Below are positions 10,594 to 64,000 of a stretch of 64,000 bases of DNA, in pieces. This DNA is from Streptomyces eurythermus (GTDB lineage: Bacteria > Actinomycetota > Actinomycetes > Streptomycetales > Streptomycetaceae): NCBI RefSeq assembly GCF_014649115.1, contig NZ_BMSK01000030.1:1-64000 (forward strand), read 5' to 3'. Every line of letters starts with the position of its first letter. The stretch's first letter is position 1. The notes under the pieces are model-generated. The model worked only from the letters and a program-made list of their open reading frames with translations, searched no databases and was not told the origin of the DNA. Both the position numbers and the translations under genes were made by a program.

Positions 10594-10594
10594 C

Positions 10595-13969: not shown

Positions 13970-14200
13970 ATGACCCAGCCGGACGGCCAGCCGCAGGCGC
14001 AAGGGCCGGGTCCGCGTCCGTCGGCTTTCGGTGAGGCCCAGTACTGCCGCCGCAATGCCGTCGAGCGATGTGTCAGCAAGTGGAAGCAGTACTGGGCGGT
14101 GGCCAGGCGGTACGACAGGCGCGACTACGTCTTCAACGGCACCCTGGCCGTCACCGCGATCATCATCTGGCTCCGAGACACGGTCCAAGAGCCATCAGAA
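13970..14200 (+). pseudogene. IS5-family transposase C-terminal remnant
   Basis: The frame reads RRNAVERCVSKWKQYWAVA, then RRYDRRDYVFNGTLAVTAII and WLRDTVQE. This is the typical C-terminal end of Streptomyces IS5-type DDE transposases (VERC..KWKQ..AVATRYDK...IIIWLRD). The DDE core and N-terminus are missing, so it is non-functional. No terminal inverted repeats were found around it. Confidence 0.7.
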
Positions 14201-14211
14201 GCGCCCTGGTG

Positions 14212-14478
14212 TCAGCCGGCCTTGCGCAGTGGATGAACGGTGCCGGTGAGGGTGCCGTCCTGCTGCTCGTAGTGGGACAGGGCGAGGCCGAGACCGAAGA
14301 AGGTGGGTGCCCATTCGCCGACGAAGAGGCCCCAGCGGTCGGCGCGGGCCAGACCGGTGCCCGGCTCCATCTTGAGGGAGCCGGCCCACGAGGCGACGCT
14401 CAGGCCGATGGAGGCGAAGGCGGCCATGTAGGCGTGTTCACTGCGGATGCCCAGGTCGTGCATCTTCTGGATGATCAT
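14212..14478 (-). CDS. Small hypothetical membrane-associated protein
   Basis: An 88-residue protein starting MIIQKMHDLGIRSEHAYMAA with GGAG 8 nt before the ATG. Two weakly hydrophobic stretches (YMAAFASIGLSVASWAGSL and FVGEWAPTFFGLGLALSHYE) suggest membrane association. No known domain is recognised. Its good ribosome site and codon bias support a real gene; its 3' end abuts the IS5 relic, which may have trimmed downstream sequence. Confidence 0.6.
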   Translation of the reverse strand: MIIQKMHDLGIRSEHAYMAAFASIGLSVASWAGSLKMEPGTGLARADRWGLFVGEWAPTFFGLGLALSHYEQQDGTLTGTVHPLRKAG

Positions 14479-16632: not shown

Positions 16633-18323
16633 CCGGTCCTGCCTTCGGTCGCGGGGGCCGTGGGTTCGGCCGGGGGGCTCCCCGGCGGCGGGGACTGCCG
16701 TGCGGCAGCCGGAAAGTCAGGGGAGGCGGCCGACGGCCCGGCGAGGCGGTGGGGAGGTCGCTCATGCGCCCGTGGCGCGGCCCGTACGCCCGTGGGGGCC
16801 GCGGCGGCCGGAGAGGAGCGCGGGCGGCTGCCGCCGCGCCCGGGTACGCCCGTGATGCGAGCCGCGGCCAGCTTCCCCGACAGCAGCACGGTCGGCACGC
16901 CGACACCGGGCGTGGTGCCGCAGCCGGCCAGGACCGCGTTCTCCGTGCCGCGTACCAGGTTGCGCGGCCGGAACGGCCCGGTCTGCGCGAAGGTGTGGGC
17001 GGCCGAGAAAGGCGTTCCGGCGGCGTGCCCCCGCGCGTGCCAGTCGGCCGGGGTGACCAGGCACTCCTCCTCGATGGCCGCCTCGATGCCGGCCAGTCCG
17101 CGCCGCTCCAGCTCCCGCAGCAGCGTGTCCCGGTAGCGCGGACCGAGGCCGGACCAGGCCGCGGGGCCCGGGCCGATGTCGGTGTTGGGGCAGGGGGCGA
17201 GGATGTAGTGCAGGTGGCGGCCGGGTGGCGCGAGACCGGGATCGGTCGCGGTCGGGCGGGTGACGAGCAGCGACGGGTCGCTCATCAGGCGTCCGGCGCG
17301 GGTGAGTTCGTCGAAGGTGGTGTGCCACGCCGCGCCGAAGGAGATCGTGTGGTGGGCGAGGTGGGGCCAGGTGCGGTCCGTGCCGGCGTGCAGCACGACC
17401 GCGGAGGGGGAGTGGCGCAGCGCGAGCGGCCGGCGCGGCCGACGGCCGAGCAGCCGGTAGGCGACGGGCAGGTCCGGGGTGAGGACGACCGCGTCGCACG
17501 GGATGCGGCCGGCGTCGGTGACGACGGCCGTGACCCGCTCGCCGGACCGCTCCAGGCGGGTCACCGGCTGCCCGAACCGCAGGTCGGCCCCGGCCGCGGC
17601 GGCCGCCTCCGCCATGGCCCGCGGCAGGGCGTGCATGCCGCCCCGGGGAAAGTACACGCCGGCGACGGTGTCCATGTAGGCGATCACCGCGTAGGCGGCC
17701 AGCGCCCGCGCCGGCGGCACACCCGCGTACAGGGCCTGGAAGGAGAACACCCGGCGCAGCCGCTCGTCGCTCAGGAAACGGCCGATCCGGGCGTCCAGGC
17801 GGCCGAAGCCGCCCAGGGCGGCCAGCCGGACGAGATCGGGGTGCAGCAGACCGAGCGGCGAGTCGAAGTCGGCGTCGATGAACCGGCGCAGCTGCGCCCG
17901 GTACAGCCGCTGGAGCCACTCGCGCAGCCGCCGGTAGCCCGCGGCCTCCGCCGCCCCGGCGAACCGCTCCACCTCCGCGGCCATCGCGTCCGCGCCGCTG
18001 TGCACGTCGAGGCTGCTGCCGTCCGCGAAGCAGGCCCGGTAGGCGGGGTGCAGGGGGATCAGCTCCACCCGCTCGTACAGGCTCGTCCCGACGGCGGCGA
18101 ACGCCTCGTCGGCCAGGTCGGGCATGGTCAGCACGGTCGGTCCGGTGTCGATCCGGTAACCGGCCAGGTCCATGCGTCCGGCCCGGCCGCCGGGCAGCTC
18201 CTCGCGCTCGACGACCGTGACCCGGCGTCCGGCGCCCAGCAGGTGCAGTGCCGCCGACAGCCCGGCGAGTCCGGCACCGACGACCACCACCCGGTCCGTG
18301 GGGCCGGGCACGGTACGCGTCAC
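16629..18323 (-). CDS. crtI: Phytoene desaturase
   Basis: A 564-residue FAD-dependent CrtI-type desaturase converting phytoene to lycopene. The N-terminus has the dinucleotide motif [20 protein letters not shown] and [13 protein letters not shown], typical of bacterial CrtI; the FAD C-terminal motif is at [20 protein letters not shown]. After about residue 495 comes a roughly 70-residue tail rich in Pro, Arg and Ala with no counterpart in short CrtI proteins. It overlaps crtE and crtB by 4 bp at each end, so translation is coupled along the operon. Confidence 0.93.
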
Positions 18324-19645
18324 CGGTCGCCCCCCGCGCCACCGCGGGCACGGGCAGCGTCACGTACCGCGGGATCCGCGTCCGGCCGCACCCCCGCCGT
18401 GGCGAGCAGCAGATCGCGCAGCGGCCCGGCGCCCTCCGGATCGAGGACGGCGCCGTCGAAGTGCCGCAGCCCCTGCCCGGCCAGCCGGTCCACCTCGGCC
18501 TCCACGGTGGCGCGCGCGCCCGTCGCGACCAGCACGTCCCGCACCTCCTCCAGGCCGCGCTCGGTGAGGGCCCCGTCACCCAGCCACCGGTCCAGCACCG
18601 CCAGCGCGGCACCGTCACCGGCGGCCTCCGCCCGCGCGCGGGCGACCGCGACCAGGTACGTGGGCTTGCCCTCCCGGATGTCGTCGCCGCACACCTCGCC
18701 GGTCACCCGCGGGTCCCCGAAGACGTCGTCCAAATCGTCGCGCAGCTGGAACGCCATGCCGACACAGCGTCCGGCGTCACCCAGCCGGCGCAGCGTCACC
18801 CGGTCGGCGCCCGCCACGGCGGCCCCCAGGGCGAGGGGCCGCTCGACCGAGTACAGGGCGCTCTTCAGGCAGGCGGCGCGCAGCACACGGGGCAGCGACC
18901 GCGCCCCGGAGACCTGCCCCTGTACGTCCAGGAACTGGCCCGCCACCATCTCCGTGCGCATGTCGCCCCACAGCCGTCGCACCACCTCCCCCGTCTCCGG
19001 CGGCAGCGGCGTCTCCGCCATCAGATCGTCGGCCCAGGCCAGCGCGAGGTCCCCGGCGAGGACCGCCGCCGACTGCCCGAACCGCTCGGCCCGCCCGGGC
19101 CCGGCCCGGCCGGCGTACCGGTCGGCCAGCTCCGTGTGCAGCGCGGGCCGGCCACGCCGCAGTACGGCCCGGTCCATCACGTCGTCGTGGACGAGCGCGC
19201 ACGTCTGGAGCAGTTCCAGGGCGCCCCCGATCCGCAGAGCCGCCGCCGCGGACGCCGCGTCCCGGCCGGCGCAGGCCCGAAAGGCCCACCACAGCAGCCG
19301 CGCACGCGTGCGCTTGCCACCCTGGAGGGTGAAGCGTGCCACCCGTTCGGCCAGTTCCTCACCGAACAGGGGATCCGCCAGCCGTGCGCGGCGCAGCCGC
19401 TCCGCCAGCACCTGGCCGAGCACCCGGCCGACGGCGCCGGGTACGTCGGCGTCGATCCGCCGCACCTCGGCGGGCCCGCCCGGCAGGGGAACGCTCTCGC
19501 GGACGCCATGTCCCTCCCCGTCGTCGGCCACCGTCCCGTGCGGATGCGACCCCACGGGCCCGGCCGCGCCCGGCGGCGCCGTCGCCGGGTGGTCCTTCGC
19601 GGGGACAGGCCGCATCCCGATTCCCCTCGCGTGGACAGGCCGCAT
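18320..19645 (-). CDS. crtE: Geranylgeranyl diphosphate synthase
   Basis: A 441-residue (from 19645) trans-prenyltransferase supplying C20 diphosphate. It has LQGGKRTRARLL, the first Asp-rich motif D154-D-V-M-D158, and the second, DDLDD at 303-307. Two starts are nearly equal: ATG 19645 with GGAGG 9 nt upstream, and ATG 19615 with GAGGGG. They arise from a 30-bp in-frame duplication, so the first 50 residues may vary and look disordered. It is the first gene of the minus-strand crt operon, coupled to crtI. The promoter lies in the 290-bp divergent gap. Confidence 0.92.
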   Translation of the reverse strand: MRPVHARGIGMRPVPAKDHPATAPPGAAGPVGSHPHGTVADDGEGHGVRESVPLPGGPAEVRRIDADVPGAVGRVLGQVLAERLRRARLADPLFGEELAERVARFTLQGGKRTRARLLWWAFRACAGRDAASAAAALRIGGALELLQTCALVHDDVMDRAVLRRGRPALHTELADRYAGRAGPGRAERFGQSAAVLAGDLALAWADDLMAETPLPPETGEVVRRLWGDMRTEMVAGQFLDVQGQVSGARSLPRVLRAACLKSALYSVERPLALGAAVAGADRVTLRRLGDAGRCVGMAFQLRDDLDDVFGDPRVTGEVCGDDIREGKPTYLVAVARARAEAAGDGAALAVLDRWLGDGALTERGLEEVRDVLVATGARATVEAEVDRLAGQGLRHFDGAVLDPEGAGPLRDLLLATAGVRPDADPAVRDAARARGGAGGDR

Positions 19646-19649
19646 CCCG
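19603..19649. repeat. 30-bp period duplication at the crtE start
   Basis: The 17-bp sequence GGACAGGCCGCATCCCG occurs at 19603-19619 and 19633-19649. Each copy carries one in-frame crtE ATG and codes MRPV, giving two candidate starts. Confidence 0.9.
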
Positions 19650-19935
19650 GTGTCCCTCCGTCGTGCTCGTACCGTCGTGCCGTCACCCGTCCGCCCGCGC
19701 GCGGACGGACACGTGAACGCCCCACGCGATCGCCGAGACCACCGGGGACCCGCCCCCTCAGCGTGCCGTGTCCGGCGCCCGGCCGCTCGCCGCCGAGGGG
19801 CGCCCTGCATCCGCCGGGGTACACAATCCGCGATACCGGGCGGGGACGACGCGACCCCCGACGGCCGGACCGGGCACGCGTCGGGCGCCGCGACGGTCCG
19901 CGACCGGAGGAAGGACACCGAGGAGAGGAGGCGCC
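19646..19935. promoter_or_regulatory. Divergent regulatory region between crtE and crtY
   Basis: This 290-bp gap must hold the promoters of both carotenoid operons. It has a GC-rich inverted sequence, CCGTCCGCCCGCGCGCGGACGG near 19689-19710, and a strong GAGGAAGG/GAGAGGAG leader before crtY. Consensus -35/-10 elements are not obvious, consistent with an alternative sigma factor. Streptomyces carotenoids are often light-induced through LitR/LitS, but no lit genes are in the window. Confidence 0.5.
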
Positions 19936-21189
19936 GTGCCGGACACGGACGTGGCCGTCGTGGGCGCGGGCGCCGCCGGGCTGTCGCTGGCCCACCGGCT
20001 CGCCGGACACGTCCCCGGCCTGCGGACACCGTCCGTCGTGCTGGTCGACGCGCCGCCCGGCCCGCTACGGCCACCCCCGCGGACCTGGTGCTACTGGGCG
20101 GCGGGACCGGGACGGTTCGACGCGGCGGTGCGGGCCGAGTGGCGGCGGCTGAGGGTGCGCCCGCGCACCGGCGCCCCGGGCGAGGGCGACATCGACCCGC
20201 TGCGGTACCGCATGATCCGCTCCGACGACTTCGAGCGCCTCGTCTCCCGGGACCTGGCCCGCAGCCCCAACGTGCGGCGCCTCGAAGCGACCGTCGGCAC
20301 GGTGGAGGACGTGCCCGGCGGCGCGCACGTCCACCTGAGGGACACCGACGGCCGGACGCGGGTGCTCAGCGCCCGCTGGGTGTTCGACTCCCGCCCCCCG
20401 GGCAGCCTCCCGGCCGCCCGTACCACCCTGTTCCAGCACTTCCACGGCTGGTTCGTGCGCACCGCCCGGCCCGTCTTCGACCCGTCCGCCGTCGAACTGA
20501 TGGACTTCCGTACCCCGCAGCCCGCCCACGGCCTGTCCTTCGGCTACGTCCTGCCGACCGGGCCGTACGAGGCGCTCGTGGAGTACACCGAGTTCTCCCG
20601 GCGCATCCTCGAACCGGACCGCTACGAGGCCGCCGTGCGGCACTACGCCGACGAGGTGCTGCGGCTCGGCGAACGGCAGGTCCTGGCCACCGAGACCGGT
20701 GTCATCCCGATGACCGACGCGCCGATCGCCCGGCAGACCGGGGCCTCGGTCTTCCGCGTCGGCGCCGCCGGCGGAGCGACCCGCCCCGCCACCGGTTACA
20801 CCTTCGCCGGACTGCAACGCCAGACCCGGGCCGTCGCCGCCGCCCTGCGCCGCGGCCGCCGCCCCGTGCCGCCCGCCGCCCACCCGGCGCGCCACCGCGC
20901 CATGGACGCCGTCCTGCTGCGCGCCCTGGACAGCGGCCGGGCCGACGGCCCGGACCTGTTCGGCCGCCTCTTCACCCGCGTGCCCATGACACGGCTGCTG
21001 CGCTTCCTCGACGGGGACACCCGCCCGCACGAGGACCTGTCCATCGGCCTGCGCACCCCCGTCGGACCGATGCTGCGCTCCGCCCTGGAACTGCCCCGCC
21101 TGCCCCGCCGCCCCCACGACCTGCCCCCGGCACCGCGTCCGCCGGCGCTTCGGGCCACCCCGCGCCTTCCCCCGACGGAGACCGCATGA
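19936..21189 (+). CDS. crtY: Lycopene beta-cyclase
   Basis: A 417-residue FAD-binding CrtY-type cyclase that converts lycopene to beta-carotene. The GTG at 19936 follows GAGAGGAG. The N-terminal dinucleotide motif is VAVVGAGAAGLSLAHRL. Family hallmarks include RTWCYWA, FQHFHGWFVRT and LPTGPYEALVEYTEFS, plus GAAGGATRPATGYTF near the flavin C-terminal site. It leads the plus-strand operon; the crtT start overlaps its stop. It diverges from crtE across a 290-bp gap. Confidence 0.9.
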   Translation: MPDTDVAVVGAGAAGLSLAHRLAGHVPGLRTPSVVLVDAPPGPLRPPPRTWCYWAAGPGRFDAAVRAEWRRLRVRPRTGAPGEGDIDPLRYRMIRSDDFERLVSRDLARSPNVRRLEATVGTVEDVPGGAHVHLRDTDGRTRVLSARWVFDSRPPGSLPAARTTLFQHFHGWFVRTARPVFDPSAVELMDFRTPQPAHGLSFGYVLPTGPYEALVEYTEFSRRILEPDRYEAAVRHYADEVLRLGERQVLATETGVIPMTDAPIARQTGASVFRVGAAGGATRPATGYTFAGLQRQTRAVAAALRRGRRPVPPAAHPARHRAMDAVLLRALDSGRADGPDLFGRLFTRVPMTRLLRFLDGDTRPHEDLSIGLRTPVGPMLRSALELPRLPRRPHDLPPAPRPPALRATPRLPPTETA

Positions 21190-53135: not shown

Positions 53136-53431
53136 CGGTCCAGCTGATGTCGTCAGTACCCTCGGCCGCTGCCGGGCCCCACGGCAAGCGCAAGGATGCG
53201 TTCCCAGGTGCCCTCCACGGCCCACCTGATCAGTCGTTTGTGGGCCGTACGAAACGAGCCGGGCTCGTCGGGCAGGTCCCGCCAAGGCGAGCAGGTTCGG
53301 TACTTCCACGCGATGGCCTCCACGGTTCGGCGGTGATCGTCGACCCACCACCGGCCACGGACCGGATCGGCCGACGTCAGCGGCTCGATCCGGTCCCACA
53401 TCGCATCAGTGATGACTAACCGGACGGACAC
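53130..53431 (-). pseudogene. IS5-family transposase N-terminal fragment
   Basis: From 53431 the frame gives MSVRLVITDAMWDRIEPLTS, then RRTVEAIAWKYRTCSPWRDL and RLIRWAVEGTWERILALA, the DUF4096 N-terminus of IS5 transposases. The next expected segment, DDISWTVSV, is present in another frame and is where IS630 sequence begins. The rest of the element is missing. Confidence 0.82.
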
Positions 53432-55037: not shown

Positions 55038-55996
55038 CGCGAAGTTCCTGATCGGTTCAGTGGTCGTAGGCGATCAGTGATCGGGAGACGGTTGCACCGG
55101 TCTTGTTGTTGTGCCAGATCGCTGCGGCCAGGGCCAGGACGCGCTGGGCGACGCGGACCGCCACACCTTCGATGGCGCGTGCACCGTGTTGCTCCAGGTC
55201 GAGCTGACCCTTGAGGGTGTCGTTGACCGACTCGATCAGTTGGCGGACCTTCTTGAGCACCGGCTCGCCGTACCGCTGCCTCTCCCGCTTGCGCGAGGGC
55301 CGCAGCAGCTCGATGCCTTGCCCGGCGAGGCCTTTTCGAATGGCTTGGACGCGAAGCCCTTGTCCGAGATCAGCACGATGCCCTCGCGGTCGGCGACCAG
55401 GTCGGCGTCGACCTCCAGCATCGCCGCAAGGACCTCGCGCTCGCCTATCTTCGGGTTGGCCAGCGCCCACATGATCGGCATTCCGGTCGGGGTGCACACC
55501 AGGTACAAGCGTAGGCCCCAAAAGAACCGGGAGTGGGAGGCGCAGTAGCCGTAGCCGGCCCAGCCCGCGAGATTGGAACGCTGCACGGTCGGGCGCGACA
55601 TCCCGCACGGCACCGGAGTCGAGTCGGTGATGCAGAGGTTGTCGAACCAGAAGTCGCTATCCATCCCCAGTTCCCGGATCATGCGCTTGACCAGCCCGAG
55701 CGTGGAGCGGAGCCGCTTGTTGTAGCCCGCGCGCTGCGGCAGGTACGGGAACATACCCGTCAGGTGCTTGTTCGCGTAGCGCAACCAGCGCGACTCAGAG
55801 TGGTAGCCGAGCAGGGCCTGGGCCACGGCCAGGCAGACGAGTTCGGAGTCGCTGAGCAGCGGCGGCCTGCCCATGCATCGGGTTCCCCCGATCTCGTCGT
55901 CGATCTTCACATACAGTGCGGTCAAGAGGGTGTTCAGGTCTGTCGTCACACACGGATCTTGGACACCCTCGCCCCTTTGACGGGCCGAAACTTCGG
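55038..55996 (-). mobile_element. IS982-family insertion sequence
   Basis: A roughly 960-bp element whose ends share CGAAGTT in inverted orientation (55040-55046 and about 55989-55995) and which encodes one IS982 transposase. It sits between the SDR stop and the PLP-lyase stop. GTCTAG occurs just outside both ends (55027-55032 and 56005-56010) but not at equal distance, so a target duplication is uncertain. Confidence 0.7.
55057..55949 (-). pseudogene. IS982 transposase, two frames joined by a -1 shift
   Basis: From GTG 55949 the first frame encodes VTTDLNTLLTALYVKIDDEI, then DSELVCLAVAQALLGYHSES and SLAGWAGYGYCASHSRFFWG, through ISDKGFASKPFEK. Just past GAAAAGG (minus strand; 55333-55337) the reading must move -1 to continue GLAGQGIELLRPSRKRERQR and VLKKVRQLIESVNDTLKGQL to the stop at 55057. 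Together they give a full-length (about 297-residue) IS982 transposase. This may be a one-base deletion or programmed -1 slippage on the A4G run; most IS982 members use a single frame. Confidence 0.8.
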
Positions 55997-56006
55997 ATCA
56001 ACTCGT

Positions 56007-57221
56007 CTAGGTCACGCGGTGCCCGGCCCGTCCCCGCAGCAGCACCTCGAAGCCCGCCCGCAGGTCCTGCTTCAGATCGGCCAGGGCCTCGAAACCGACG
56101 TGCACCCGGATCAGGGGTCCCCTCCCCGCCCATGTGCCGGGCAGCCGGTGGGAGACGGGATCGGCGGGCACGATCAGGCTCTCGTAGCCGCCGTAGCTGT
56201 GGCCGAGACCGAACAGGCGCAGCCGGTCCAGCATCGCGTCGACGTCCGGTTTGCCGAAGTCCGGGTCGAGCTCCACCCCGAACAGGCCGGCCGCGCCCGT
56301 GAAGTCCCGGCGCCACAGATCGTGGCCGGGGTCCCCGGGCAGCCCCGGGTGCAGGACCGCCGCCACGCCCTTCTGGCCGGCGAGCCAGCGCGCCAGTTCC
56401 AGGCCTTGCTCCTGGTGGCGGGCCAGGCGCACGTCGAGGGTGCGCAGCCCGCGCAGGCCCAGATAGACGTCGTCGGCCCCCGCGCACTGGCCGAGGCGCA
56501 TCGCCGCGCCCCGGATGAGCGGGTAACTCTCCTCGGTGCAGACGACCGCGCCGAGGATGCTGTCCGCGTGGCCCGTCAGGTACTTGGTCGCGGAGTGCAC
56601 CACCGCGTCCACGCCCGCGCCCAGGGCCAGCGGGCGGTGGAACGCCGGTGTGGCCCAGGTGTTGTCGGCGACGGTGGCCACCCCGTGCGCCCGGCAGACG
56701 GCGGTGATCGCCGGGATGTCCTGCACCTCGAAGGTGGTGGAACCCGGGGACTCGAGGTACAGCAGCCTCGTCCGCGGGCGGATCAGCCGGGCGACGGCGG
56801 CGCCGTCCGCGGTCGGGCGGTAGTACTCGGTCTCCACACCCAGCGCGGCGAGCGAGTCGCAGAACCTCCGGGTCGGCAGGTACACCGAGTCGCTGACCAG
56901 GATGTGGTCGCCGGCCTGGACGTACGCGAGGATCGTCGTGGTGATCGCGGAGAGGCCGGAGCAGGTCACCACCGCGGCGTGGCCGCCCTCCAGCTCGGTC
57001 AGCGCCTCCTCGAAGGCGCGGCTGGTGGGCGTGCCGAACCGGCCGTAGACCGGGCCGCCCCGCTTGAGCGGGTCGGCCTGGGAGGCGTCCATCTCGGCCA
57101 CGTCCCGGTAGAGGACCGTGGAGGCGTGGTGCACGGGCGGGTTGACGTAGCCGCCCTGCCGGCGCGGGTCCGCACCGGCGTGCACGTACCGTGTCTCCGG
57201 CGCGTCGACGGGCTCGTTCAC
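56007..57221 (-). CDS. PLP-dependent Cys/Met-metabolism lyase (MetC-like)
   Basis: A 404-residue fold-type I PLP enzyme. The Schiff-base lysine is K213 in VVHSATKYLTGHADS. Other landmarks are VYGRFGTPTSRAFEEALTEL, VTCSGLSAITTTILAYVQAG, YLESPGSTTFEVQDIPAI and VADNTWATPAFHRPLALGAG. The ESPGS motif favours cystathionine beta-lyase-type proteins, though gamma-elimination enzymes look similar. The GTG overlaps the MFS stop (GTGA). It is the last gene of the radical SAM/ATP-grasp cluster and likely performs an elimination or C-S bond step. Its stop is 11 bp from an IS982 end, so former downstream genes could be lost. Confidence 0.9.
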   Translation of the reverse strand: MNEPVDAPETRYVHAGADPRRQGGYVNPPVHHASTVLYRDVAEMDASQADPLKRGGPVYGRFGTPTSRAFEEALTELEGGHAAVVTCSGLSAITTTILAYVQAGDHILVSDSVYLPTRRFCDSLAALGVETEYYRPTADGAAVARLIRPRTRLLYLESPGSTTFEVQDIPAITAVCRAHGVATVADNTWATPAFHRPLALGAGVDAVVHSATKYLTGHADSILGAVVCTEESYPLIRGAAMRLGQCAGADDVYLGLRGLRTLDVRLARHQEQGLELARWLAGQKGVAAVLHPGLPGDPGHDLWRRDFTGAAGLFGVELDPDFGKPDVDAMLDRLRLFGLGHSYGGYESLIVPADPVSHRLPGTWAGRGPLIRVHVGFEALADLKQDLRAGFEVLLRGRAGHRVT

Positions 57222-58480
57222 CGGCCCACCGCCGGTTCGGGCAGCGGCGGTTGGGCGACCGCCGGCCGCCGGTTGCGGCCCAGCGCCAGGGCGAGCAGTG
57301 CCGCGACCGCGCACTGCGCCGCCACCACCAGCCAGAACGCGCCCAGCCGGCCGTCGGACTTGTAGTGGGCGAAGACGAAACCGCCGACGACACCGGCAAG
57401 GAGCCCGCCGACACCGCCCGTGAGCCGCTGCACACCGAAGGCGAACGCCGCGTTGCGGGGCAGGAGTTCGACCAGCTCCAGGTCGCAGCGTAGGAAGAGG
57501 AAGATCTCGCCCATGGTGAACAGCGCGGTGCCGGCCAGCAGGGCCGGGGTGCCGCCGACCGCCATGACCGCCATGCCGGCCGCCATCACCGCGAACGAAC
57601 CGGCCATCAGCAGCCGGTAGTCGGCCTTGGCGATACGGTCGGCCAGCACCGGCTGGAGCACCACCACCATGGCGCAGTTGAGCAGCATCACCCAGCCCAG
57701 CGCCCGGATGTCGGACACCCCGGCCGCGTACAGGCCGATGAAGCTCTGGAAGAAGAAGTACAGGTAGTAGGCGAGCGCGGTGAACAGCACCGGGCGCAAT
57801 GCCCCCCGCAGCGCCGCCCACTTCCCGGCGGGCCCCTCCGCCTCGGCCGTTCCCGGCGCCGCGGCCGGCCGGCGCTCGACCGGTTTCAGGGTGATCTGGT
57901 GGGCCACGGTGATCAGCGCGAAGAGCCCGGCCAGCCCGATGAGCAGTGCTATCGGGTCTGCGTCGACCAGCAGCGCGGCCAGCAACGGGCCCAGGCCCAT
58001 ACCGGCGTTGAGCGCGGCACTGCTCACCCCGAGGAACAGCGGGCGCAGTTCGTCGGAGACGCTGGTGACGATGTACGCCTTGTTCGCCGGGAGGTACAGC
58101 GCCGGACCGCCGGCCACGAGGACGACGGCCGGGTACGCCACCCACGGCAGATGGACGGCCACCCCGAGCAGCACCAGACCGGCCGTGCGCAGGGTCAGCG
58201 CGAACACCATGGTCCGCTTGAGCCCGAGCCGGTCCACGACCGCGCCGCCCAGGATGCTGCCGCCGAACTGGATGAACGTGGCCACCGCCACCAGCACCGC
58301 GGCCACCCGGACGTCCAGGCGGACGGCCTCGACCATGAGCACCCCGATGAACGGGGTGACCATGTAACTGCCCAGCGCGACGACGAACGACAAGGCGATC
58401 AGGGCCTTCAGCGCGGACGGCAGCGCGGTGAACGTCCGGTACTTGGCGGCGAGTCCGCCGCCGACGCGCCCCCCGCTCAC
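57218..58480 (-). CDS. MFS transporter of the ATP-grasp/radical SAM cluster
   Basis: A 420-residue 12-helix permease. The GTG at 58480 overlaps the sulfurtransferase stop (GTGA). Helices include LKALIALSFVVALGSYMVTP and GGSILGGAVVDRLGLKRTMV with the MFS loop motif; the second half has LFTMGEIFLFLRCDLELVEL. It probably exports the cluster product, providing self-resistance. A comparable exporter is present in dipeptide/amino-acid antibiotic clusters such as bes. Confidence 0.88.
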   Translation of the reverse strand: MSGGRVGGGLAAKYRTFTALPSALKALIALSFVVALGSYMVTPFIGVLMVEAVRLDVRVAAVLVAVATFIQFGGSILGGAVVDRLGLKRTMVFALTLRTAGLVLLGVAVHLPWVAYPAVVLVAGGPALYLPANKAYIVTSVSDELRPLFLGVSSAALNAGMGLGPLLAALLVDADPIALLIGLAGLFALITVAHQITLKPVERRPAAAPGTAEAEGPAGKWAALRGALRPVLFTALAYYLYFFFQSFIGLYAAGVSDIRALGWVMLLNCAMVVVLQPVLADRIAKADYRLLMAGSFAVMAAGMAVMAVGGTPALLAGTALFTMGEIFLFLRCDLELVELLPRNAAFAFGVQRLTGGVGGLLAGVVGGFVFAHYKSDGRLGAFWLVVAAQCAVAALLALALGRNRRPAVAQPPLPEPAVGR

Positions 58481-59349
58481 GGTGAATCGCTCCCGCCGGT
58501 GGCCACCGGGCGCTTCGAGGGCAGGCCCCACTCGCTCCACGAGCCGTCGTACACCGCGAGTTCGCGGTAGCCGGCCAGGGTGGCGCCGAGCGCGAGGACG
58601 CAGGCGGTGACGCCGGAGCCGCAGCTGAAGTACAGCTGCTCCCGGTCCCCGGCCGCCGCCTTGAACGCCGTACGCAGCTCCTCCGCCGGACGCATCACGC
58701 CGCCGTCGCGCTGGAGTTCGCCGAAGGGCAGGCTGACCGAGCCGGGCATGTGGCCGCCGCGCAGGCCCGGGCGGGGCTCGGGGGCGGTGCCCGCGTAGCG
58801 TTCCCGGGTGCGCGCGTCGAGCACCGCGGCACGCGGGTCGGCGAGGGCGGCGGCGACGGTGTCGGCGTCCACGATCAGCCCGGGCCGGGGCCGGGCCGTG
58901 AACGTGCCGCGCGGTCCGTCGTACGCGGCGGGCTCGTCCTCGACCGGGTGGCCGGCCGCGGTCCAGGCGGGCAGCCCGCCGTCCAGCACGGCGACCCGGT
59001 CGAAGCCCATGGCGCGCAGCATCCACCAGGCGCGGGCGCTGGAGTAGACGCCCTGGGCGTCGTAGACGACGACCGTGTCGGTGTCGTGCAGGCCGAGGGC
59101 GCGCAGCGCCTCGGTGAACTCCGCGGGGCCGGGCATGGTGTGCGGCACCGCGCTGGTGTGGTCGGACAGGTCCCCGTCCAGGTCGAAGGGGCGGGCCCCG
59201 GGGATGCGCGCGGCGGCGCCCCGGCGGGCGCCGACGGAGGCGTCGAAGAGGACCAGGCCCTCCCCGAGCCGACCGGCCACCCAGTCGGCGTCCACGAGCG
59301 GCCCGGCCGGCTCGACGGTGGTGTGCTCAGGGGGCGTTGTGGCGCTCAC
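58477..59349 (-). CDS. Sulfurtransferase, 3-mercaptopyruvate type (tandem rhodanese)
   Basis: A 290-residue two-domain rhodanese. The N-terminal domain is inactive (ARAWWMLRAMGFDRVAVLDG). The C-terminal domain has the catalytic loop C243-G-S-G-V-T, the signature of mercaptopyruvate sulfurtransferase rather than thiosulfate sulfurtransferase (CRKGVT). GGAGG precedes the GTG, which overlaps the ATP-grasp stop. It would accept a persulfide from 3-mercaptopyruvate and pass sulfur on, or release sulfide. In this operon a sulfur-delivery role for the product is plausible. Confidence 0.9.
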   Translation of the reverse strand: MSATTPPEHTTVEPAGPLVDADWVAGRLGEGLVLFDASVGARRGAAARIPGARPFDLDGDLSDHTSAVPHTMPGPAEFTEALRALGLHDTDTVVVYDAQGVYSSARAWWMLRAMGFDRVAVLDGGLPAWTAAGHPVEDEPAAYDGPRGTFTARPRPGLIVDADTVAAALADPRAAVLDARTRERYAGTAPEPRPGLRGGHMPGSVSLPFGELQRDGGVMRPAEELRTAFKAAAGDREQLYFSCGSGVTACVLALGATLAGYRELAVYDGSWSEWGLPSKRPVATGGSDSP

Positions 59350-60566
59350 GCGGTACCTCCGCAGGACTGGGCGGGCCGCCACCGGGAGTTGTCGGAGAAC
59401 CAGCCCGCCACGTGTTCGAGATTGGCAGCCACATCCTCCTCGCTGTCCCCGTCGACCACATAACCGGCCAGGAACAACCCGGACTTCACCCCGCCGTGGA
59501 ACTCCTGGCCGACACTCCCGGTGAGCATCACCTCGCGGACGCACCGGGGCTGCTCGGCCGTCGCGGTGGGCAGCTGCTCCAGCACCCCGTTCTGCGGCGG
59601 GATGCACAGCGCGCCGGCGGGCCGGTACTCCGGGGTGCCCAGCGTCGAGGGCAGACCGCACTCGGCGTACAGCCACTCCTTGTCCAGGTCGATCCCGAAG
59701 GCGTGCCGGACCAACGCGCTGATCATGCCGCCACCGGTACGGCTGGCGATCTCGCAGAAGACCAGCCGGTCGTCCGGCGTGATCCAGAACTCGGCGTGGA
59801 AGGCGGTCCGGGGCGGCGTCGGCAGCTCGGCCAGCACCGCCCGTGCCGCCTTGACCAGCCGGTCGTACAGCGGGTCCTCGCGGGTGAGCGGCAGGTTGGC
59901 CACCCAGTCGTTGCTGCGGAAGGACAGGCAGTCGTTGAGGTAGCGGAAGGGGTGGACGAAGACGACCTCGCCGCCGGCCACCAGCCCGTCCACGTGGTAC
60001 ATCTGCCCGGGTACGAACACCTCGATCTCGCTGCTTCCCCGCCACGGGCTGGCCAGGTAGGCGTCCAGTTCCGCCTCGTCACGGATGATCGCCGCGCCCA
60101 GCGAGCCCGACTCGGACACCGGCTTGATCACGACCGGGTAGCCGTGCTCGGCAACGAAGCCCAGGGCGGTGTAGGCCGAGTCGAGCCGGCGGTAGGCCGG
60201 CACGTCGACGGGGCCGCCCGCGAGGTGGTCCTTCATCACGACCTTGTCGCGGAAGGCCAGCGCGCTCGCGGTGTGCTGGCCCGGCAGTCCGAGCAGCTCC
60301 CGCAGCTGGGCGGCGCGCACGACGTCGGCCTCGGCACGGGCGAAGACCGCCTCGACCGCGAACTCGCGGGCCAGCCGCAGCGCGGTCTTCTCGACCAGCT
60401 GGTTGGTGTCGTACGCGTCGAAAGCGTGCACGTGCGGGAGGTGGGAGTAGCCCTCCGCGTACTCCCGCGCGGTCACGATGACCGGGACGATCCCCGAGCC
60501 GGCCAGCCACTGGTCGTACGGGGTCTTGGCGTAGGGCGTCTTGGCGAAGACGAGGATGTGGCGCAT
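59346..60566 (-). CDS. ATP-grasp ligase 2
   Basis: A 406-residue ATP-grasp enzyme. The N-terminal Rossmann-like part starts MRHILVFAKTPYAKTPYDQW, with a direct AKTPY repeat at residues 8-17. ATP-binding features are FRDKVVMKDHLAGG, YPVVIKPVSESGSLGAAIIR and FVPGQMYHVDGLV. The Mg-binding end is LVFCEIASRTGGGMISALVR. It joins a carboxylate to an amine through an acyl phosphate; substrates are unknown. It lies 20 bp after the radical SAM gene and is coupled to the sulfurtransferase. Confidence 0.9.
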   Translation of the reverse strand: MRHILVFAKTPYAKTPYDQWLAGSGIVPVIVTAREYAEGYSHLPHVHAFDAYDTNQLVEKTALRLAREFAVEAVFARAEADVVRAAQLRELLGLPGQHTASALAFRDKVVMKDHLAGGPVDVPAYRRLDSAYTALGFVAEHGYPVVIKPVSESGSLGAAIIRDEAELDAYLASPWRGSSEIEVFVPGQMYHVDGLVAGGEVVFVHPFRYLNDCLSFRSNDWVANLPLTREDPLYDRLVKAARAVLAELPTPPRTAFHAEFWITPDDRLVFCEIASRTGGGMISALVRHAFGIDLDKEWLYAECGLPSTLGTPEYRPAGALCIPPQNGVLEQLPTATAEQPRCVREVMLTGSVGQEFHGGVKSGLFLAGYVVDGDSEEDVAANLEHVAGWFSDNSRWRPAQSCGGTA

Positions 60567-60586
60567 GGCGGGGTCTTTCTCTCGGT

Positions 60587-61828
60587 TCAGGACGCGGAGT
60601 CGGTGAGGAGCGGCAGCCGGCGCCGCTCCGGGACCCGGGAGATCAGGCCGAGCTCCTCGGACAGCTCGGTGGCGAAGCAGCCGTCCTTGTACGTGCCGGC
60701 GAGCCGCTTGGCGGTGAACGCCTCGATCCCGTCGTGATCGAACTCCACGTCGTACGTGGTGGCGTCGGCCGTGACGGTGCGGGTCAGGATGCCGAGGTGC
60801 GGCTCGAAGGTGTTGACGCAGCCGACGATGTCGCCGATCTTCTCACGGCGGCCCTCCGGACCCTCCGAAAGCACCTCCTCCGGGGCGGGAATGGCGGCGA
60901 AGAGCTGACGGCCGGCCCGGCACCAGCCGACGTGGCCGGGGAAGCCCATGGCCTTGATGCCGAAGGTGCCGAAGTCCTCGCTGACGCCCAGCTGGAAGTG
61001 CAGCGGGACCGTCTCGTGCAGCCACTTGAAGTCGCGGTAGGCCTGCTCGACCTCCTCGCGGCTCAGGCGCAGTTCGGGGTGGCGGTTGCCGTGGTCGGTG
61101 AAGTTGTTGAACCGGACGGTGGCCACGCCCAGCTTGTTGAAGTAGTGGGCGTAGCGCTCCAGCGAGGTGCGGCCGTGGTTGTGGCGGCCGATGGTGACAC
61201 CGATGTTGACGCGGAAGGCGTCCTCGGGGGCGATGCCCTCGTTGTACTCGGCGATCCGGCGCAGCACCTCCTCGGTGTCCGCGCCCGAGAAGACGCCCTT
61301 GATGGGGTAGGTCCTGTGGTCCCGGACGCGGAGGTTCTCGTCGATCACGCCGTGGTAGGTGATGGAGATGGTGCCGTAGCCGTTCTCCACCGCCCGGTCG
61401 AGGAGTTCCCGCCAGTTGTCGGCGAGCAGCGGGCGGCCGCTGGTCCAGGCGTCGCCCTTCTCCATGGTCGCGGTCGGCGTGTGGTCCAACTCCTGCCGGA
61501 ACTCACGGTTGTTGGCCGGGCCGTACAGGTTCATGAACTCGCCGTCGTAGGCGAAGCTGTCCACGTAGCGCGGGTAGACGTGGTACCCGTGCGACCGCAG
61601 GCCCTCCAGGATGCGGGGGCCCTCCTCCATGGCGAAGGACTTGTCGTAGACCTTCTCGTAGTTGACGAACCAGCAGTGCGCGCACTTCTGGCCGCAGGTG
61701 TTCTTGCCGACCTTGGTGTCGAGGTCGAGGTAGATGTGGATGTCGTCGGGCTTGATGTCCTTGAAGGGAGTGGAGAACGGGACATCGCCGTGGAAATCGT
61801 AAGAAACCGGTGCGTTCTGGACGGACAT
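60587..61828 (-). CDS. Radical SAM enzyme
   Basis: A 413-residue protein. The 4Fe-4S motif is C45-G-Q-K-C49-A-H-C52 (CX3CX2C) in VGKNTCGQKCAHCWFVNYEK. The SAM-binding core follows: DGEFMNLYGPANNREFRQEL, GYGTISITYHGVIDENLRVR and NIGVTIGRHNHGR. The C-terminal 100 residues contain two Cys in GWCRAGRQLF and GDIVGCVNTF, not enough for a SPASM domain. The ATG at 61828 is preceded by GGGGGCC. The reaction is unknown; it is likely a carbon-centred modification of an amino acid. It lies between two ATP-grasp genes and behind an 11-bp hairpin. Confidence 0.9.
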   Translation of the reverse strand: MSVQNAPVSYDFHGDVPFSTPFKDIKPDDIHIYLDLDTKVGKNTCGQKCAHCWFVNYEKVYDKSFAMEEGPRILEGLRSHGYHVYPRYVDSFAYDGEFMNLYGPANNREFRQELDHTPTATMEKGDAWTSGRPLLADNWRELLDRAVENGYGTISITYHGVIDENLRVRDHRTYPIKGVFSGADTEEVLRRIAEYNEGIAPEDAFRVNIGVTIGRHNHGRTSLERYAHYFNKLGVATVRFNNFTDHGNRHPELRLSREEVEQAYRDFKWLHETVPLHFQLGVSEDFGTFGIKAMGFPGHVGWCRAGRQLFAAIPAPEEVLSEGPEGRREKIGDIVGCVNTFEPHLGILTRTVTADATTYDVEFDHDGIEAFTAKRLAGTYKDGCFATELSEELGLISRVPERRRLPLLTDSAS

Positions 61829-61910
61829 GTGGCCCCCGATGCGGTGTTCGTCGTCTGAAAGGAGACAAGGAGACGGGAAGGAAGGGCGGAACCGGCGTTG
61901 CCGGGAGGTA

Positions 61911-61935
61911 CGGGGAGCCGCGGCGCGGCTCCCCG
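61911..61935 (-). terminator. Intercistronic hairpin between ATP-grasp 1 and radical SAM
   Basis: CGGGGAGCCGC (61911-61921) pairs perfectly with GCGGCTCCCCG (61925-61935), loop GGC, one base past the stop of ATP-grasp 1. It may attenuate or stabilise the transcript within the operon. Confidence 0.65.
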
Positions 61936-63156
61936 TCACAGATGTGGCTCGGGCGCGGTGGTGACCACCGGGCGGGCGGTGAGTTCCGCGACGGCCGCCG
62001 TGCAGGCGTCGGTGCCGGCCGCGGTCAGGACGGCCATGCCCAGCCGGTCGGCGGAGGAGCGCAGCGGGCGCACCTCGTCCCCGGGCCGGACGGTGAGGTC
62101 CCAGGCGTGCACCCGTCCCTGCGTGAGGGCGGGCGGCGGCGCGACGGCCGTCACGCGTCCGGGCGGGGCGGTGAGGAAGACGGTGGCGGCCGCGACGGCC
62201 GCGGCGGGGCCCCGCCGGATTTTGTCGCCGATCGCCCAGCCGAGGGCGGCGCGCCGCCACTCGACCCCGGTGGTGAGCTGGACCAGGTCCGCGATGCCGT
62301 CGCCGCCGAGCCGGGTGTGGGTCTCGATCACGACGATCTTGTCGCCGTCGACCATGACCTCGGTGTGGCTGGGACCGTCGGTGAGCCCGAGGGCGTCGAG
62401 CAGTTCGCCGACCGCCCGGGCGACCAGCTCCTGGCGGCGCGGGTCCAGGGAGGGCGGCGGCATCATATGGCTGACCTCGACGAAGCCGTCCGTGGTGCCC
62501 TTCTCGGCGATGCCGATGACGGTGTGCCGCCCGCCCGCGGAGAGGGCCTCGACACTGAACTCCCGCCCCTCGGCGAACTGTTCGAACAGGGTGGCGGCCG
62601 TACGGCGGTCCGCCGGGAGCGCGTCGGCGCTCTCCACCAGGGCGATGGAGGCGCTGCCGACCCCGTCGACCGGCTTGGTCACGACCCGGCCGTGGACGGC
62701 GAACAGCCGGTCCACCGCCGCCGTGTCGTCGCCGGCGGCGAAGGCCGGGTTCAGATGCGGTGCCTCGCGCTCCAGGATCCGCCGCATGGCGAGTTTGTCG
62801 CGGGTGGCGTGCACCACGGCCGGGTCGACTCCGGTGACACCGAGCAGGCGGGCGGCCAGCGCGGCCGGCTCCAGGCCGAACTCGGTGAGCGAGACGACGG
62901 CGGTGGGCCGCAGGGGGCGCAGCACCTCGTCGGTGAAGGTCAGGAAGGCGGGCAGGTCCCGGAAGTCGGCCGTCAGCACCCGGGTGCCCGGGTCGAGGGC
63001 GGGTGTGCCGGGCAGCTGTACGTGGACCAGTTCGCCGGGCAGGGACGCCGCCGCCCGCGCCACGGTCGGGTTGGCGCCGACGATCACCAGAGTGGAGACG
63101 TCGTCCGTGTTGCCCGGACAGTCCTCGTCCGGACCCCCCGCGTTCACTGCGTCCAC
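61936..63156 (-). CDS. ATP-grasp ligase 1 (L-amino-acid-ligase-like)
   Basis: A 406-residue ATP-grasp enzyme of the L-amino acid ligase type. GTG 63156 has GGGGAGG just upstream; a TTG 17 codons earlier lacks a ribosome site. Features: VSTLVIVGANPTVARAAASL, TRDKLAMRRILEREAPHLNP, GRVVTKPVDGVGSASIALVE and EQFAEGREFSVEALS. The metal-binding end is SHTEVMVDGDKIVVIETHTR, then LGGDGI. BacD/BesA-type enzymes make dipeptides or gamma-glutamyl peptides. It is the first gene of the cluster, with a promoter about 45 bp upstream. Confidence 0.88.
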   Translation of the reverse strand: MDAVNAGGPDEDCPGNTDDVSTLVIVGANPTVARAAASLPGELVHVQLPGTPALDPGTRVLTADFRDLPAFLTFTDEVLRPLRPTAVVSLTEFGLEPAALAARLLGVTGVDPAVVHATRDKLAMRRILEREAPHLNPAFAAGDDTAAVDRLFAVHGRVVTKPVDGVGSASIALVESADALPADRRTAATLFEQFAEGREFSVEALSAGGRHTVIGIAEKGTTDGFVEVSHMMPPPSLDPRRQELVARAVGELLDALGLTDGPSHTEVMVDGDKIVVIETHTRLGGDGIADLVQLTTGVEWRRAALGWAIGDKIRRGPAAAVAAATVFLTAPPGRVTAVAPPPALTQGRVHAWDLTVRPGDEVRPLRSSADRLGMAVLTAAGTDACTAAVAELTARPVVTTAPEPHL

Positions 63157-63207
63157 TTTTCCTCCCCGTCCCGCGTCGAGCGCTGGTTCGGCCGACGCGG
63201 CGAGCAA

Positions 63208-63600
63208 GACAATCGCAAGCGTGCTCGGAGGATGTCAATAGGATCACGCACCGTGATCATCGCGCCCGCCGGCCGGGCCTGACCTGGCATAGGCCGTCCC
63301 CACGAGGGACGCTTCACGCCTCGTACGGCCGGCCGGCGGCTCCCGCCGGCCCGCGCGCGGATACCCCCCTCGTCACGTCATTCCGGCCAACTATCCGGCC
63401 ACTGCGACACACTCCGTTCACAAAACCCCAGCACGACCTGCGTAACGTCGGTGGTTTCCGGCCAATCACCGGGTCGGAGCGACGTGCGACGACGATTCGG
63501 GGGAAGCGGACCGTTTCCGGCGAGGTCGGAGCGGCACCGGGGCCACGCCCGGCACGGGCGGCGGGGTTCTCCCGCACCCCGGACGCGGGGTGGCCCGGCG
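63208..63600. other. Intergenic region of about 390 bp
   Basis: It holds the cluster promoter and palindrome at its left end. No gene is visible in 63260-63600; open frames crossing it have no codon bias or ribosome site. Confidence 0.5.
63209..63258 (-). promoter_or_regulatory. Promoter with adjacent palindromic operator for the ATP-grasp/radical SAM operon
   Basis: On the minus strand TTGACA (63238-63233), an 18-nt spacer and GATTGT (63214-63209) resemble a sigma-70-type promoter, predicting a start near 63202. The perfect palindrome GATCACG-CAC-CGTGATC lies at 63242-63258, just upstream of the -35, where a regulator would bind. Confidence 0.6.
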
Positions 63601-64000
63601 CTACCGGCCGGCGGCCGCGGCGTCCGCCCGGTCGGACCGCAGCCGTGCGGCCGGCCGGGCCACCTCGGCGTACAGCGGATCGTCGTGCGCCACTCCCCAG
63701 CGGTGCAGATGGACGAGCAGCCGGGTGATCACGGTGTCGTACTCCACGAGCACGGAGACTCTTCTTCGCGGTGAGCGGCTCGACGCGCATCAGGTACTGG
63801 TGGGTGGGCTCGTCGATCTTGCCGTGCGACTTGGAGCTCGCGGCGTAACGGCCGACCCCCTTGTGCGGGTCGCTCGCGTAGTCGAGCTTCGCCCTGACGA
63901 GGCCGCTCTGAGCGGCGGTCAGTGTCCCTCCGACCTGTTCCAGCAGGCCCCTCAGAAGGTCGATCCCCGCATTCCGTTCCTCGGCCGGCCGGCGGATCCC
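63601..64000 (-). pseudogene. Partial gene at window edge with apparent frameshift
   Basis: From the window end the minus-strand frame reads AEERNAGIDLLRGLLEQVGG, TLTAAQSGLVRAKLDYASDP and DEPTHQYLMRVEPLTAKKS. Near 63755 the coding bias moves to another frame: VLVEYDTVITRLLVHLHRWG, VAHDDPLYAEVARPA and a stop at 63601. One indel joins them into a smooth product. An alternative is that GTG 63758 starts a second small gene (AAGAAGAG upstream). The family is not recognised and the N-terminus is outside the window. Confidence 0.5.

What the first reader, a model, noticed from the sequence alone, without database searches (positions are those of the whole stretch)
59346..60566. Two non-identical ATP-grasp ligases in one locus
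The two proteins differ in length of N-terminal region and in metal-binding motif (IETHTRLGGDG versus CEIASRTGGGM), so they are not a recent duplication. Two successive ligations would give a tripeptide-like product, or one may activate a non-amino-acid carboxylate. The second also carries a direct AKTPY repeat at its N-terminus.
Basis: partly seen in the sequence, partly recalled or inferred. Interest (0 to 1): 0.5.

Follow-up and report, generated by a model that had tools for sequence, protein, structure and literature searches.

The report
Two ligases in mobile antimetabolite operon
The two unlike ATP-grasp ligases are real and belong to a compact six-gene operon that recurs in scattered Streptomyces, and in altered form on an enterobacterial plasmid; it probably makes and exports a small peptide whose unusual amino acid is built by a radical-SAM-like enzyme that matched none of the protein-family models searched.

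Summary
In detail: two full-length, distantly related (29% identity) ATP-grasp ligases lie in one locus, at 61936-63147 and 59346-60566. They fall on opposite sides of a deep split in a tree, so they are not a recent duplication. Two details fail: the regions before the motif are equally long, and the AKTPY repeat is exact in only 6 of 12 orthologs.

The unit is a six-gene minus-strand operon: ligase 1, radical-SAM-like protein, ligase 2, rhodanese-type sulfurtransferase, MFS exporter, MetC-type cystathionine beta-lyase. Eleven other Streptomyces loci carry it in the same order in different surroundings; 9 of 11 have all six genes. The radical-SAM-like protein has six invariant cysteines and no Pfam match at E = 5. 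In 392 genomes of the genus, it and an above-cut-off MetC-type lyase occur in the same 8. A Providencia plasmid has a related radical-SAM gene followed by one ligase, another MFS and a PatB-type C-S lyase.

Best reading: a mobile operon for a di- or tripeptide antimetabolite, with a radical-SAM-made amino acid, capped by ligases and exported. The C-S lyase either protects the host or takes part in sulfur chemistry. Product, target and all activities are untested. New variant of a known kind.

The parts
63209..63238 (-). promoter-like site TTGACA-N18-GATTGT; GATTGT begins 67 bases before the ligase 1 start codon
   Evidence: coordinates and spacing; TTGACA within 300 bases upstream of ligase 1 in 11 of 11 sequences (window included), followed after 17-18 bases by GATTGT or GATGTT in 8 of 11; activity untested
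61936..63147 (-). ligase 1 (ATPg1), ATP-grasp L-amino-acid-ligase type, 403 aa, GTG start
   Evidence: Pfam LAL_C2 and ATP-grasp_4 above cut-off; best solved relative 3vot L-amino acid ligase, E 3.9e-15; ortholog in 10 of 11 related loci
60587..61828 (-). radical-SAM-like protein, 413 aa, CX3CX2C at C45/C49/C52 plus invariant C303, C337, C384
   Evidence: six invariant Cys in 11 aligned sequences including Providencia; no Pfam at E up to 5, no NCBIfam at E up to 0.001; VIA-align rows led by radical SAM enzymes, best Z 10.1, on a low-confidence model (pLDDT 59)
59346..60566 (-). ligase 2 (ATPg2), the finding; ATP-grasp, RizA-like, 406 aa
   Evidence: phmmer best 4wd3 E 4.5e-18; Foldseek best RizA 4wd3 E 5.2e-20 on a pLDDT-57 model; ortholog in 11 of 11 related loci
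58477..59349 (-). rhodanese-type sulfurtransferase (3-mercaptopyruvate sulfurtransferase-like), overlaps ligase 2 by 4 bases
   Evidence: Pfam Rhodanese 87.5 bits; NF008557 203.5 bits, below its 250 cut-off; present in 10 of 11 loci
57218..58480 (-). MFS transporter, overlaps the sulfurtransferase by 4 bases
   Evidence: Pfam MFS_1 89.7 bits; present in 11 of 11 loci, though split in L001
56007..57221 (-). MetC-type cystathionine beta-lyase (PLP enzyme), overlaps the transporter by 4 bases
   Evidence: TIGR01324 446.9 bits, cut-off 365.9; Tyr56, Tyr111, Lys210, Ser339, Arg372 positions kept in 12 of 12 operon copies, Trp340 position is Tyr in 11 of 12

Best explanation
A self-contained, horizontally spread six-gene operon that makes, protects against and exports a short peptide antimetabolite. 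Step 1 (inferred): the radical-SAM-like enzyme turns a common amino acid or related metabolite into an unusual amino acid, the warhead. Step 2 (inferred from family): ligases 1 and 2 join it to one or two ordinary amino acids through acyl-phosphate intermediates, giving a di- or tripeptide that is less toxic to the maker and can enter competitors through peptide uptake. Step 3 (inferred): the MFS protein exports it. Step 4 (inferred, least certain): the C-S lyase is a cystathionine-beta-lyase isozyme that the product does not inhibit, or that destroys it, so the maker keeps its methionine pathway; the sulfurtransferase is an accessory that at least one strain has lost. Shown: the genes, their order, their co-conservation, the conserved catalytic residues of the lyase, and the presence of counterparts from other families (lyase, transporter) beside the Providencia radical-SAM homolog. 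Not shown: any activity, substrate, product or target.
For: Same gene order in 11 of 11 related Streptomyces loci, all six genes in 9 of 11. Flanks of up to 7 kb share no match of 250 bases or more on the same side except 263 bases next to the promoter between L001 and the window (blastn, E 1e-10). Tight packing: 4-base overlaps at the last three junctions, 107 and 20 bases at the first two. Radical-SAM-like gene in 8 of 392 genomes of the window's genus and above-cut-off MetC-type lyase in 8 of 392, the same eight handles (in both searches at most four candidates per genome were scored). In a 61-genome sample with all candidates scored, the MetC-type lyase passes cut-off in 1 of 61, the window's own genome. 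Providencia pR33-1: radical-SAM homolog (50% identity), one ligase, a different MFS and a PatB-family C-S lyase (TIGR04350, 409.9 bits, cut-off 340) in one run of genes: a C-S lyase is kept while the protein family changes. Precedents: PnaB/PnaC (PMC11867202, passages); RizA makes Arg-X dipeptides (PMC9321006, passages); APPA of rhizocticin targets threonine synthase and the peptide is described as a Trojan horse (PMC13302981, passages).
Against: No product or activity is known. E. coli rings for both the MetC and the PatB model, so 'the operon carries the isozyme type that the host lacks' holds for the Streptomyces sample but not cleanly for enterobacteria; the Providencia chromosome was not available. 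The degraded Enterobacter stretch keeps sulfurtransferase and MFS but neither type of C-S lyase is found in its 20 kb. Ligase 1 is missing in L008 and the sulfurtransferase in L002, so not every part is essential. A biosynthetic role for the lyase would give the same gene pattern. The radical-SAM assignment rests on motif, the annotation of the Providencia homolog and a low-confidence model; Foldseek alone ranks an ene-reductase first and lists many other TIM barrels, and VIA-align's own note says that best Z values of 7 to 8 are common for models without a clear match.
Confidence: 0.45

Rival explanations
1. Same peptide pathway, but the C-S lyase and the sulfurtransferase are biosynthetic: they deliver sulfur (thiol or persulfide) that the radical-SAM enzyme, with its extra cysteines, builds into the product as a new C-S bond, or the lyase cleaves a cysteine-S-conjugate intermediate to a free thiol.
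For: Two sulfur enzymes in one operon; lyase present in the window and 11 of 11 loci; a C-S lyase of another family in the Providencia stretch; three invariant cysteines beyond CX3CX2C could bind an auxiliary cluster; operon lyases differ from 12 MetC-like comparison sequences at the Trp340 position, as a new substrate might require.
Against: The sulfurtransferase is deleted in L002, where a C-terminal tail remains, and none is found in the Providencia stretches read.
Confidence: 0.32
2. A sulfur-metabolism or detoxification operon, not an antimetabolite pathway: the ligases make a protective gamma-linked or dipeptide thiol, the lyase and sulfurtransferase manage sulfur.
For: Lyase and sulfurtransferase are close to families of ordinary cysteine and methionine metabolism.
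Against: Rare and patchy (8 of 392 genomes of the genus), different integration sites, transporter present, a radical-SAM-like enzyme without catalogued family: the pattern of specialised metabolism (inference).
Confidence: 0.12
3. A ribosomal peptide (RiPP) system in which the radical-SAM enzyme and ATP-grasp proteins modify a gene-encoded precursor.
For: VIA-align rows include peptide-modifying radical SAM enzymes SuiB and SkfB.
Against: Little room for a precursor gene between the window's six genes (largest gap 107 bases; in the ten other loci with ligase 1 the gap before the radical-SAM gene is 90-209 bases); upstream regions align well only near the promoter; ligases are closest to free-amino-acid ligases. 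Small ORFs were not searched systematically.
Confidence: 0.06
4. The two ligases are chance neighbours or one is inactive.
For: Ligase 1 missing in L008; one ligase only in the Providencia stretch.
Against: Ligase 2 in 11 of 11 and ligase 1 in 10 of 11 loci in the same order; the motif's Glu and Arg are kept in 12 of 12 and 11 of 11 sequences.
Confidence: 0.03

Closest known systems
Phosphonoalamide pathway of Streptomyces (PnaB and PnaC; PMC11867202)
   Same: [quoted passage not shown] ligation proposed also as self-protection (passages read).
   Different: There the warhead is a phosphonate whose synthesis starts with phosphoenolpyruvate mutase; here no operon protein matched such an enzyme by family (the mutase appears only among weak TIM-barrel rows of the radical-SAM-like model), and the warhead step would be the radical-SAM-like protein. 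PnaB and PnaC sequences were not compared.
Rhizocticin and its ligase RizA (4wd3; PMC9321006, PMC13302981)
   Same: Ligase 2 is closest to RizA by sequence and by fold. Rhizocticin is a peptide-borne inhibitor of an enzyme of amino acid synthesis; a self-resistance paper stands in a review's reference list (title seen only; paper not held).
   Different: Only 22% identity in the fold alignment; RizA's Arg specificity cannot be carried over. The putative target here would be in transsulfuration, not threonine synthesis.
Bacilysin-type (BacD ligase) and dapdiamide-type (DdaF) clusters
   Same: Ligases 1 and 2 match the BacD model weakly, ligase 2 also DdaF. That those clusters pair a ligase with an exporter and an unusual amino acid is recalled.
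   Different: Far below those models' cut-offs (for example 28 against 840 bits for DdaF).
Aminoethoxyvinylglycine and rhizobitoxine (inhibitors of cystathionine beta-lyase; recalled)
   Same: Natural amino-acid antimetabolites acting on the enzyme type encoded in the operon.
   Different: No link by sequence was tested; the nine papers listed for aminoethoxyvinylglycine and gene clusters did not by title or abstract start describe such an operon (listing only).

Membership tests
ATP-grasp L-amino acid ligase (ligase 2) | ATP-grasp domain | tested here: met
   CPSase_L_D2 24.5 bits over 19.8; ATP-grasp_4 25.7, just under 27
ATP-grasp L-amino acid ligase (ligase 2) | fold of solved L-amino acid ligases | tested here: met
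   Foldseek rank 1 RizA 4wd3 E 5.2e-20, next BacD and 3vot E 1.3e-12; model mean pLDDT 57, TM 0.45, so supportive rather than precise; other ATP-grasp enzymes follow closely
ATP-grasp L-amino acid ligase (ligase 1) | ATP-grasp and LAL C-terminal domain | tested here: met
   LAL_C2 47 bits over 29.4, ATP-grasp_4 45.8 over 27
ATP-grasp L-amino acid ligase (both) | ATP-dependent peptide bond formation between amino acids | not testable with these tools
   needs an enzyme assay
Radical SAM superfamily | CX3CX2C cluster motif after the first barrel strand | tested here: met
   C45, C49, C52 invariant in 11 of 11 aligned; strand 31-35 precedes it in the model
Radical SAM superfamily | partial TIM-barrel fold | tested here: inconclusive
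   VIA-align: 14 of 1000 chains with Z 8 or more, rows led by DesII 10.1, SkfB 9.9, SuiB 9.2; Foldseek alone none at E 0.001 or better, first row an ene-reductase; model pLDDT 59
Radical SAM superfamily | match to a catalogued profile (Pfam at E 5, NCBIfam at E 0.001) | tested here: not met
   0 families; a profile match is not what defines the superfamily, hence 'radical-SAM-like'
Radical SAM with SPASM or twitch domain | C-terminal auxiliary cluster cysteines | tested here: inconclusive
   C303, C337, C384 invariant; no auxiliary-domain profile matched
MetC-type cystathionine beta-lyase (TIGR01324) | score over the curated cut-off | tested here: met
   446.9 bits over 365.9
MetC-type cystathionine beta-lyase (TIGR01324) | catalytic Tyr56, Tyr111, Lys210, Ser339, Arg372 (E. 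coli numbering counted on the alignment; roles recalled) | tested here: met
   kept in 12 of 12 operon copies
MetC-type cystathionine beta-lyase (TIGR01324) | Trp340, present in 12 of 12 comparison sequences | tested here: not met
   Tyr in 11 of 12 operon copies, Trp in L008; not a defining residue, but the pocket differs
3-mercaptopyruvate sulfurtransferase (NF008557) | score over the curated cut-off | tested here: not met
   203.5 bits, cut-off 250; called rhodanese-type here
Graspetide or other RiPP cluster | precursor peptide gene | tested here: inconclusive
   no gap over 107 bases inside the window's operon; short ORFs outside not searched systematically

The most novel reading that the evidence does not exclude
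A new class of minimal, mobile peptide-antibiotic operon aimed at transsulfuration: one radical-SAM enzyme of an uncatalogued family makes, in a single step, an amino-acid warhead against cystathionine beta-lyase; ligases mask it as a peptide; the operon brings an insensitive cystathionine beta-lyase of whichever family is to hand (MetC type in Streptomyces, PatB type in Providencia) as self-resistance.
Probability: 0.3. Interest if true: 0.78.

Novelty: new variant of a known kind. Interest (0 to 1): 0.52.

Why it matters
Pathways built from ATP-grasp ligases and an unusual amino acid are known, but a radical-SAM-like enzyme as the maker of the warhead, from a family that no Pfam or NCBIfam model picked up, would be new chemistry in a six-gene package small enough to express and test. 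If the lyase is a resistance gene, the operon names its own target: methionine synthesis through cystathionine beta-lyase. The Providencia copy shows that the radical-SAM gene is found, with comparable partners, in another phylum.

Tried and rejected
Paper searches for the gene combination listed no paper that by title or abstract start describes this operon (searches returned none at all); only listings were seen for those. The library lacks most subscription journals, so this is no proof of absence. The E-64 pathway paper (PMC12568646) was opened at outline and abstract only and is not used.

Viral contigs: no relative of the radical-SAM-like protein. E. coli genomes: no DNA match to the Providencia radical-SAM and ligase genes. 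Plasmids at E up to 1 with the Providencia protein: only the same two records. An Rfam scan of 55900-64000 gave one match, psaA, at 24.2 bits against a 50-bit gathering score, on the opposite strand inside ligase 1: taken as chance; no SAM or methionine riboswitch was reported.

Considered and dropped: inferring Arg specificity for ligase 2 from RizA (identity too low); inferring an arginine link because the operon lies between arg-like genes in L009 (one locus, genes judged by eye from the translations); the idea that ligase 2 and the sulfurtransferase form an obligate thiocarboxylate pair (L002 keeps ligase 2 without the sulfurtransferase); calling the lyase residues at E. coli positions 59 and 116 operon-specific, since these positions vary among the 12 comparison sequences as well. 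A further check for this report searched the enterobacterial stretches by tblastn at E 1e-3: no sulfurtransferase or MetC-type lyase in the Providencia stretches, both ligase queries hitting the one ligase there, and neither lyase type in the Enterobacter stretch.

Limits of counts: at most four first-look candidates per genome were scored; one search listed only matches at E 1e-100 or better. The genome-contig scan used exact peptide patterns of the window's protein. PLSDB's gene tables are incomplete by its own note.
Full report
WHAT IS THERE. The finding's ORF, 59346-60566 on the minus strand, is a 406-residue ATP-grasp protein (ligase 2), and 61936-63147 is a second one of 403 residues (ligase 1). 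They share 29% identity over 240 aligned positions. The quoted motifs sit at residues 274 (ligase 1) and 271 (ligase 2), so the claimed difference in N-terminal length is not there; it may have come from reading ligase 1 from an upstream start. AKTPYAKTPY is exact in 6 of 12 sequences. The first-stage coordinates cover ligase 2 only.

THE UNIT. Between and beyond the ligases lie four more genes on the same strand: a radical-SAM-like protein (60587-61828), a rhodanese-type sulfurtransferase (58477-59349), an MFS transporter (57218-58480) and a cystathionine beta-lyase (56007-57221). Gaps are 107 and 20 bases, then three 4-base overlaps. A promoter-like TTGACA-N18-GATTGT lies upstream of ligase 1. 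TTGACA occurs within 300 bases upstream of ligase 1 in 11 of 11 sequences, followed after 17-18 bases by GATTGT or GATGTT in 8 of 11.

RECURRENCE. A genome scan with the radical-SAM-like protein found 11 Streptomyces loci, 78-96% identical. All 11 have the same gene order; 9 of 11 have all six genes, L002 lacks the sulfurtransferase and L008 lacks ligase 1. L002 retains a C-terminal tail of the sulfurtransferase reading frame in front of the transporter, a deletion scar. In L008's genome the best match to ligase 1 has 33% identity. In L001 the transporter gene is split, with an inverted piece in between, either damage or an assembly fault. Flanks of up to 7 kb on each side were compared for the window and the 11 loci (blastn, E 1e-10, matches of 250 bases or more): the only match on the same side is 263 bases beside the promoter (L001 and window); L004-left and L007-right share three segments. 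So the operon appears to move as a unit. In L008 a tRNA-Ser gene lies 488 bases upstream of the radical-SAM gene; no tRNA gene was found in the ten other loci.

RARITY AND THE LYASE. The radical-SAM-like protein is in 8 of 392 sampled genomes of the window's genus and in 2 of 396 genomes across the phylum, both of the same genus. The MetC-type lyase model TIGR01324 passes its cut-off in 8 of 392, and the handles are the same eight (G000, G064, G095, G149, G218, G249, G330, G364), each on the same contig within about 5 kb. In a wider sample with all candidates scored it passes in 1 of 61, the window's own genome, though weaker relatives (other Cys/Met-metabolism enzymes) ring in 61 of 61. The MetC-type lyase thus looks foreign to the genus and comes with the operon. 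The window's genome has two PatB-like proteins (330 and 318 bits, cut-off 340); PatB-like matches at 1e-60 occur in 41 of 61 genomes, over the cut-off in 5 of 61.

OUTSIDE STREPTOMYCES. Of 72,556 plasmid records, two match the radical-SAM-like protein. Providencia sp. R33 plasmid pR33-1 has a homolog at 50% identity, annotated as radical SAM protein, followed by one ATP-grasp ligase, an MFS transporter and a PatB-family C-S lyase (409.9 bits, cut-off 340). In the stretches read, 114000-124159 and 1-14348, no sulfurtransferase, second ligase or MetC-type lyase is annotated or found by tblastn. The Providencia ligase lies on the ligase-1 side of the tree, on a long branch. Its MFS shows no BLAST match at E 1e-3 to the window's. 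Only the radical-SAM gene is clearly orthologous; the other roles are filled by distant relatives or counterparts. An Enterobacter cloacae plasmid keeps a C-terminal piece of the radical-SAM gene, a sulfurtransferase (44% identity) and an MFS, with neither lyase type in the 20 kb read.

THE RADICAL-SAM-LIKE PROTEIN. Six cysteines are invariant in 11 aligned sequences: C45, C49, C52 (CX3CX2C) and C303, C337, C384. It matches nothing in Pfam even at E = 5, nothing in NCBIfam at E 0.001 and no solved chain by sequence below E 0.1. The AlphaFold2 model is weak (mean pLDDT 59). Foldseek alone finds nothing at E 0.001 or better; its first row is an ene-reductase and many rows are other TIM barrels, with SuiB, SkfB and viperin-like enzymes among the top rows. 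VIA-align, a second look at those rows, puts radical SAM enzymes first (DesII Z 10.1, SkfB 9.9, SuiB 9.2, biotin synthase 8.8, MoaA 8.2), but by its own note a best Z of 7 to 8 is common without kinship. I call it radical-SAM-like; that the extra cysteines bind an auxiliary cluster is inference.

THE LIGASES. Ligase 2 is closest to RizA by sequence (4wd3, E 4.5e-18) and by fold (E 5.2e-20, next 1.3e-12; model pLDDT 57). Ligase 1 is closest to 3vot. In a 34-row tree each forms one group and a 100/100 branch parts them (long branches are present and the bootstrap had not settled). RizA makes Arg-X dipeptides (PMC9321006, passages), but the specificity cannot be transferred at this distance. Several ligases in one locus are not unique: the one S. 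zaomyceticus plasmid locus read carries three ATP-grasp genes, and phosphonoalamides are made by two such ligases (PMC11867202, passages).

THE LYASE POCKET. Twelve MetC-like homologs were fetched, chosen from the 136 plasmid records that match (6 of the 12 are annotated as cystathionine beta-lyase, the other records had no annotation there). Against them, the 12 operon lyases keep the catalytic positions listed above, but carry Tyr at the Trp340 position in 11 of 12, where 12 of 12 comparison sequences have Trp, and His at the Tyr338 position in 12 of 12, where the comparison sequences vary and none has His. This fits an isozyme with an altered pocket: insensitive to an inhibitor, or tuned to another substrate. 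It does not tell which.

MECHANISM. The arrangement of a maker of an unusual amino acid, amino acid ligases, an exporter and a second copy of a metabolic enzyme resembles peptide antimetabolite clusters such as rhizocticin, where the warhead APPA hits threonine synthase and the peptide is described as a Trojan horse (PMC13302981, passages). By analogy the product here would be a di- or tripeptide and its target would lie at cystathionine beta-lyase. I give this whole reading 0.45; the peptide part alone deserves more, the protective role of the lyase less. The main rival makes the lyase and sulfurtransferase part of the synthesis (0.32).

LIMITS. No activity was tested. Enterobacterial chromosomes other than E. 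coli could not be searched. The genome-contig scan used exact peptide patterns of the window's protein, so diverged relatives were missed. E. coli rings for both lyase types, so the mismatch argument is clean only for Streptomyces.

Noticed in passing
window 55236-55949 (-) and 53153-53431 (-): Transposase remnants beside the operon: an IS982-family ORF (122 bits, cut-off 130) whose near end lies 57 bases from the lyase stop, and an IS4/5 DUF4096 piece.
   Followed up: partly
L001:13349-15057: In Streptomyces misionensis the operon's MFS gene is split by about 540 bases that include an inverted copy of part of the gene; real damage or assembly fault.
   Followed up: no
L068:4607-14720: Streptomyces zaomyceticus plasmid locus with three ATP-grasp genes (one annotated NikS), serine acetyltransferase, cysteine synthase-like, AMP-binding and tyrosine 2,3-aminomutase genes: an unassigned peptide-like cluster; other S. 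zaomyceticus and S. goshikiensis plasmids have similarly spaced ligase hits (not read).
   Followed up: no
G000:C38:572-2672 (L017, L014): The window's genome has two further adjacent ATP-grasp matches on another contig, perhaps a second ligase-based pathway.
   Followed up: no
L022:8707-12521: Enterobacter cloacae conjugative plasmid with a degraded copy: transposase, radical-SAM C-terminal piece, sulfurtransferase, MFS.
   Followed up: partly
window 15601-20074 (-): Carotenoid-type genes: squalene/phytoene synthase, amine-oxidase/desaturase-like and polyprenyl synthetase.
   Followed up: no
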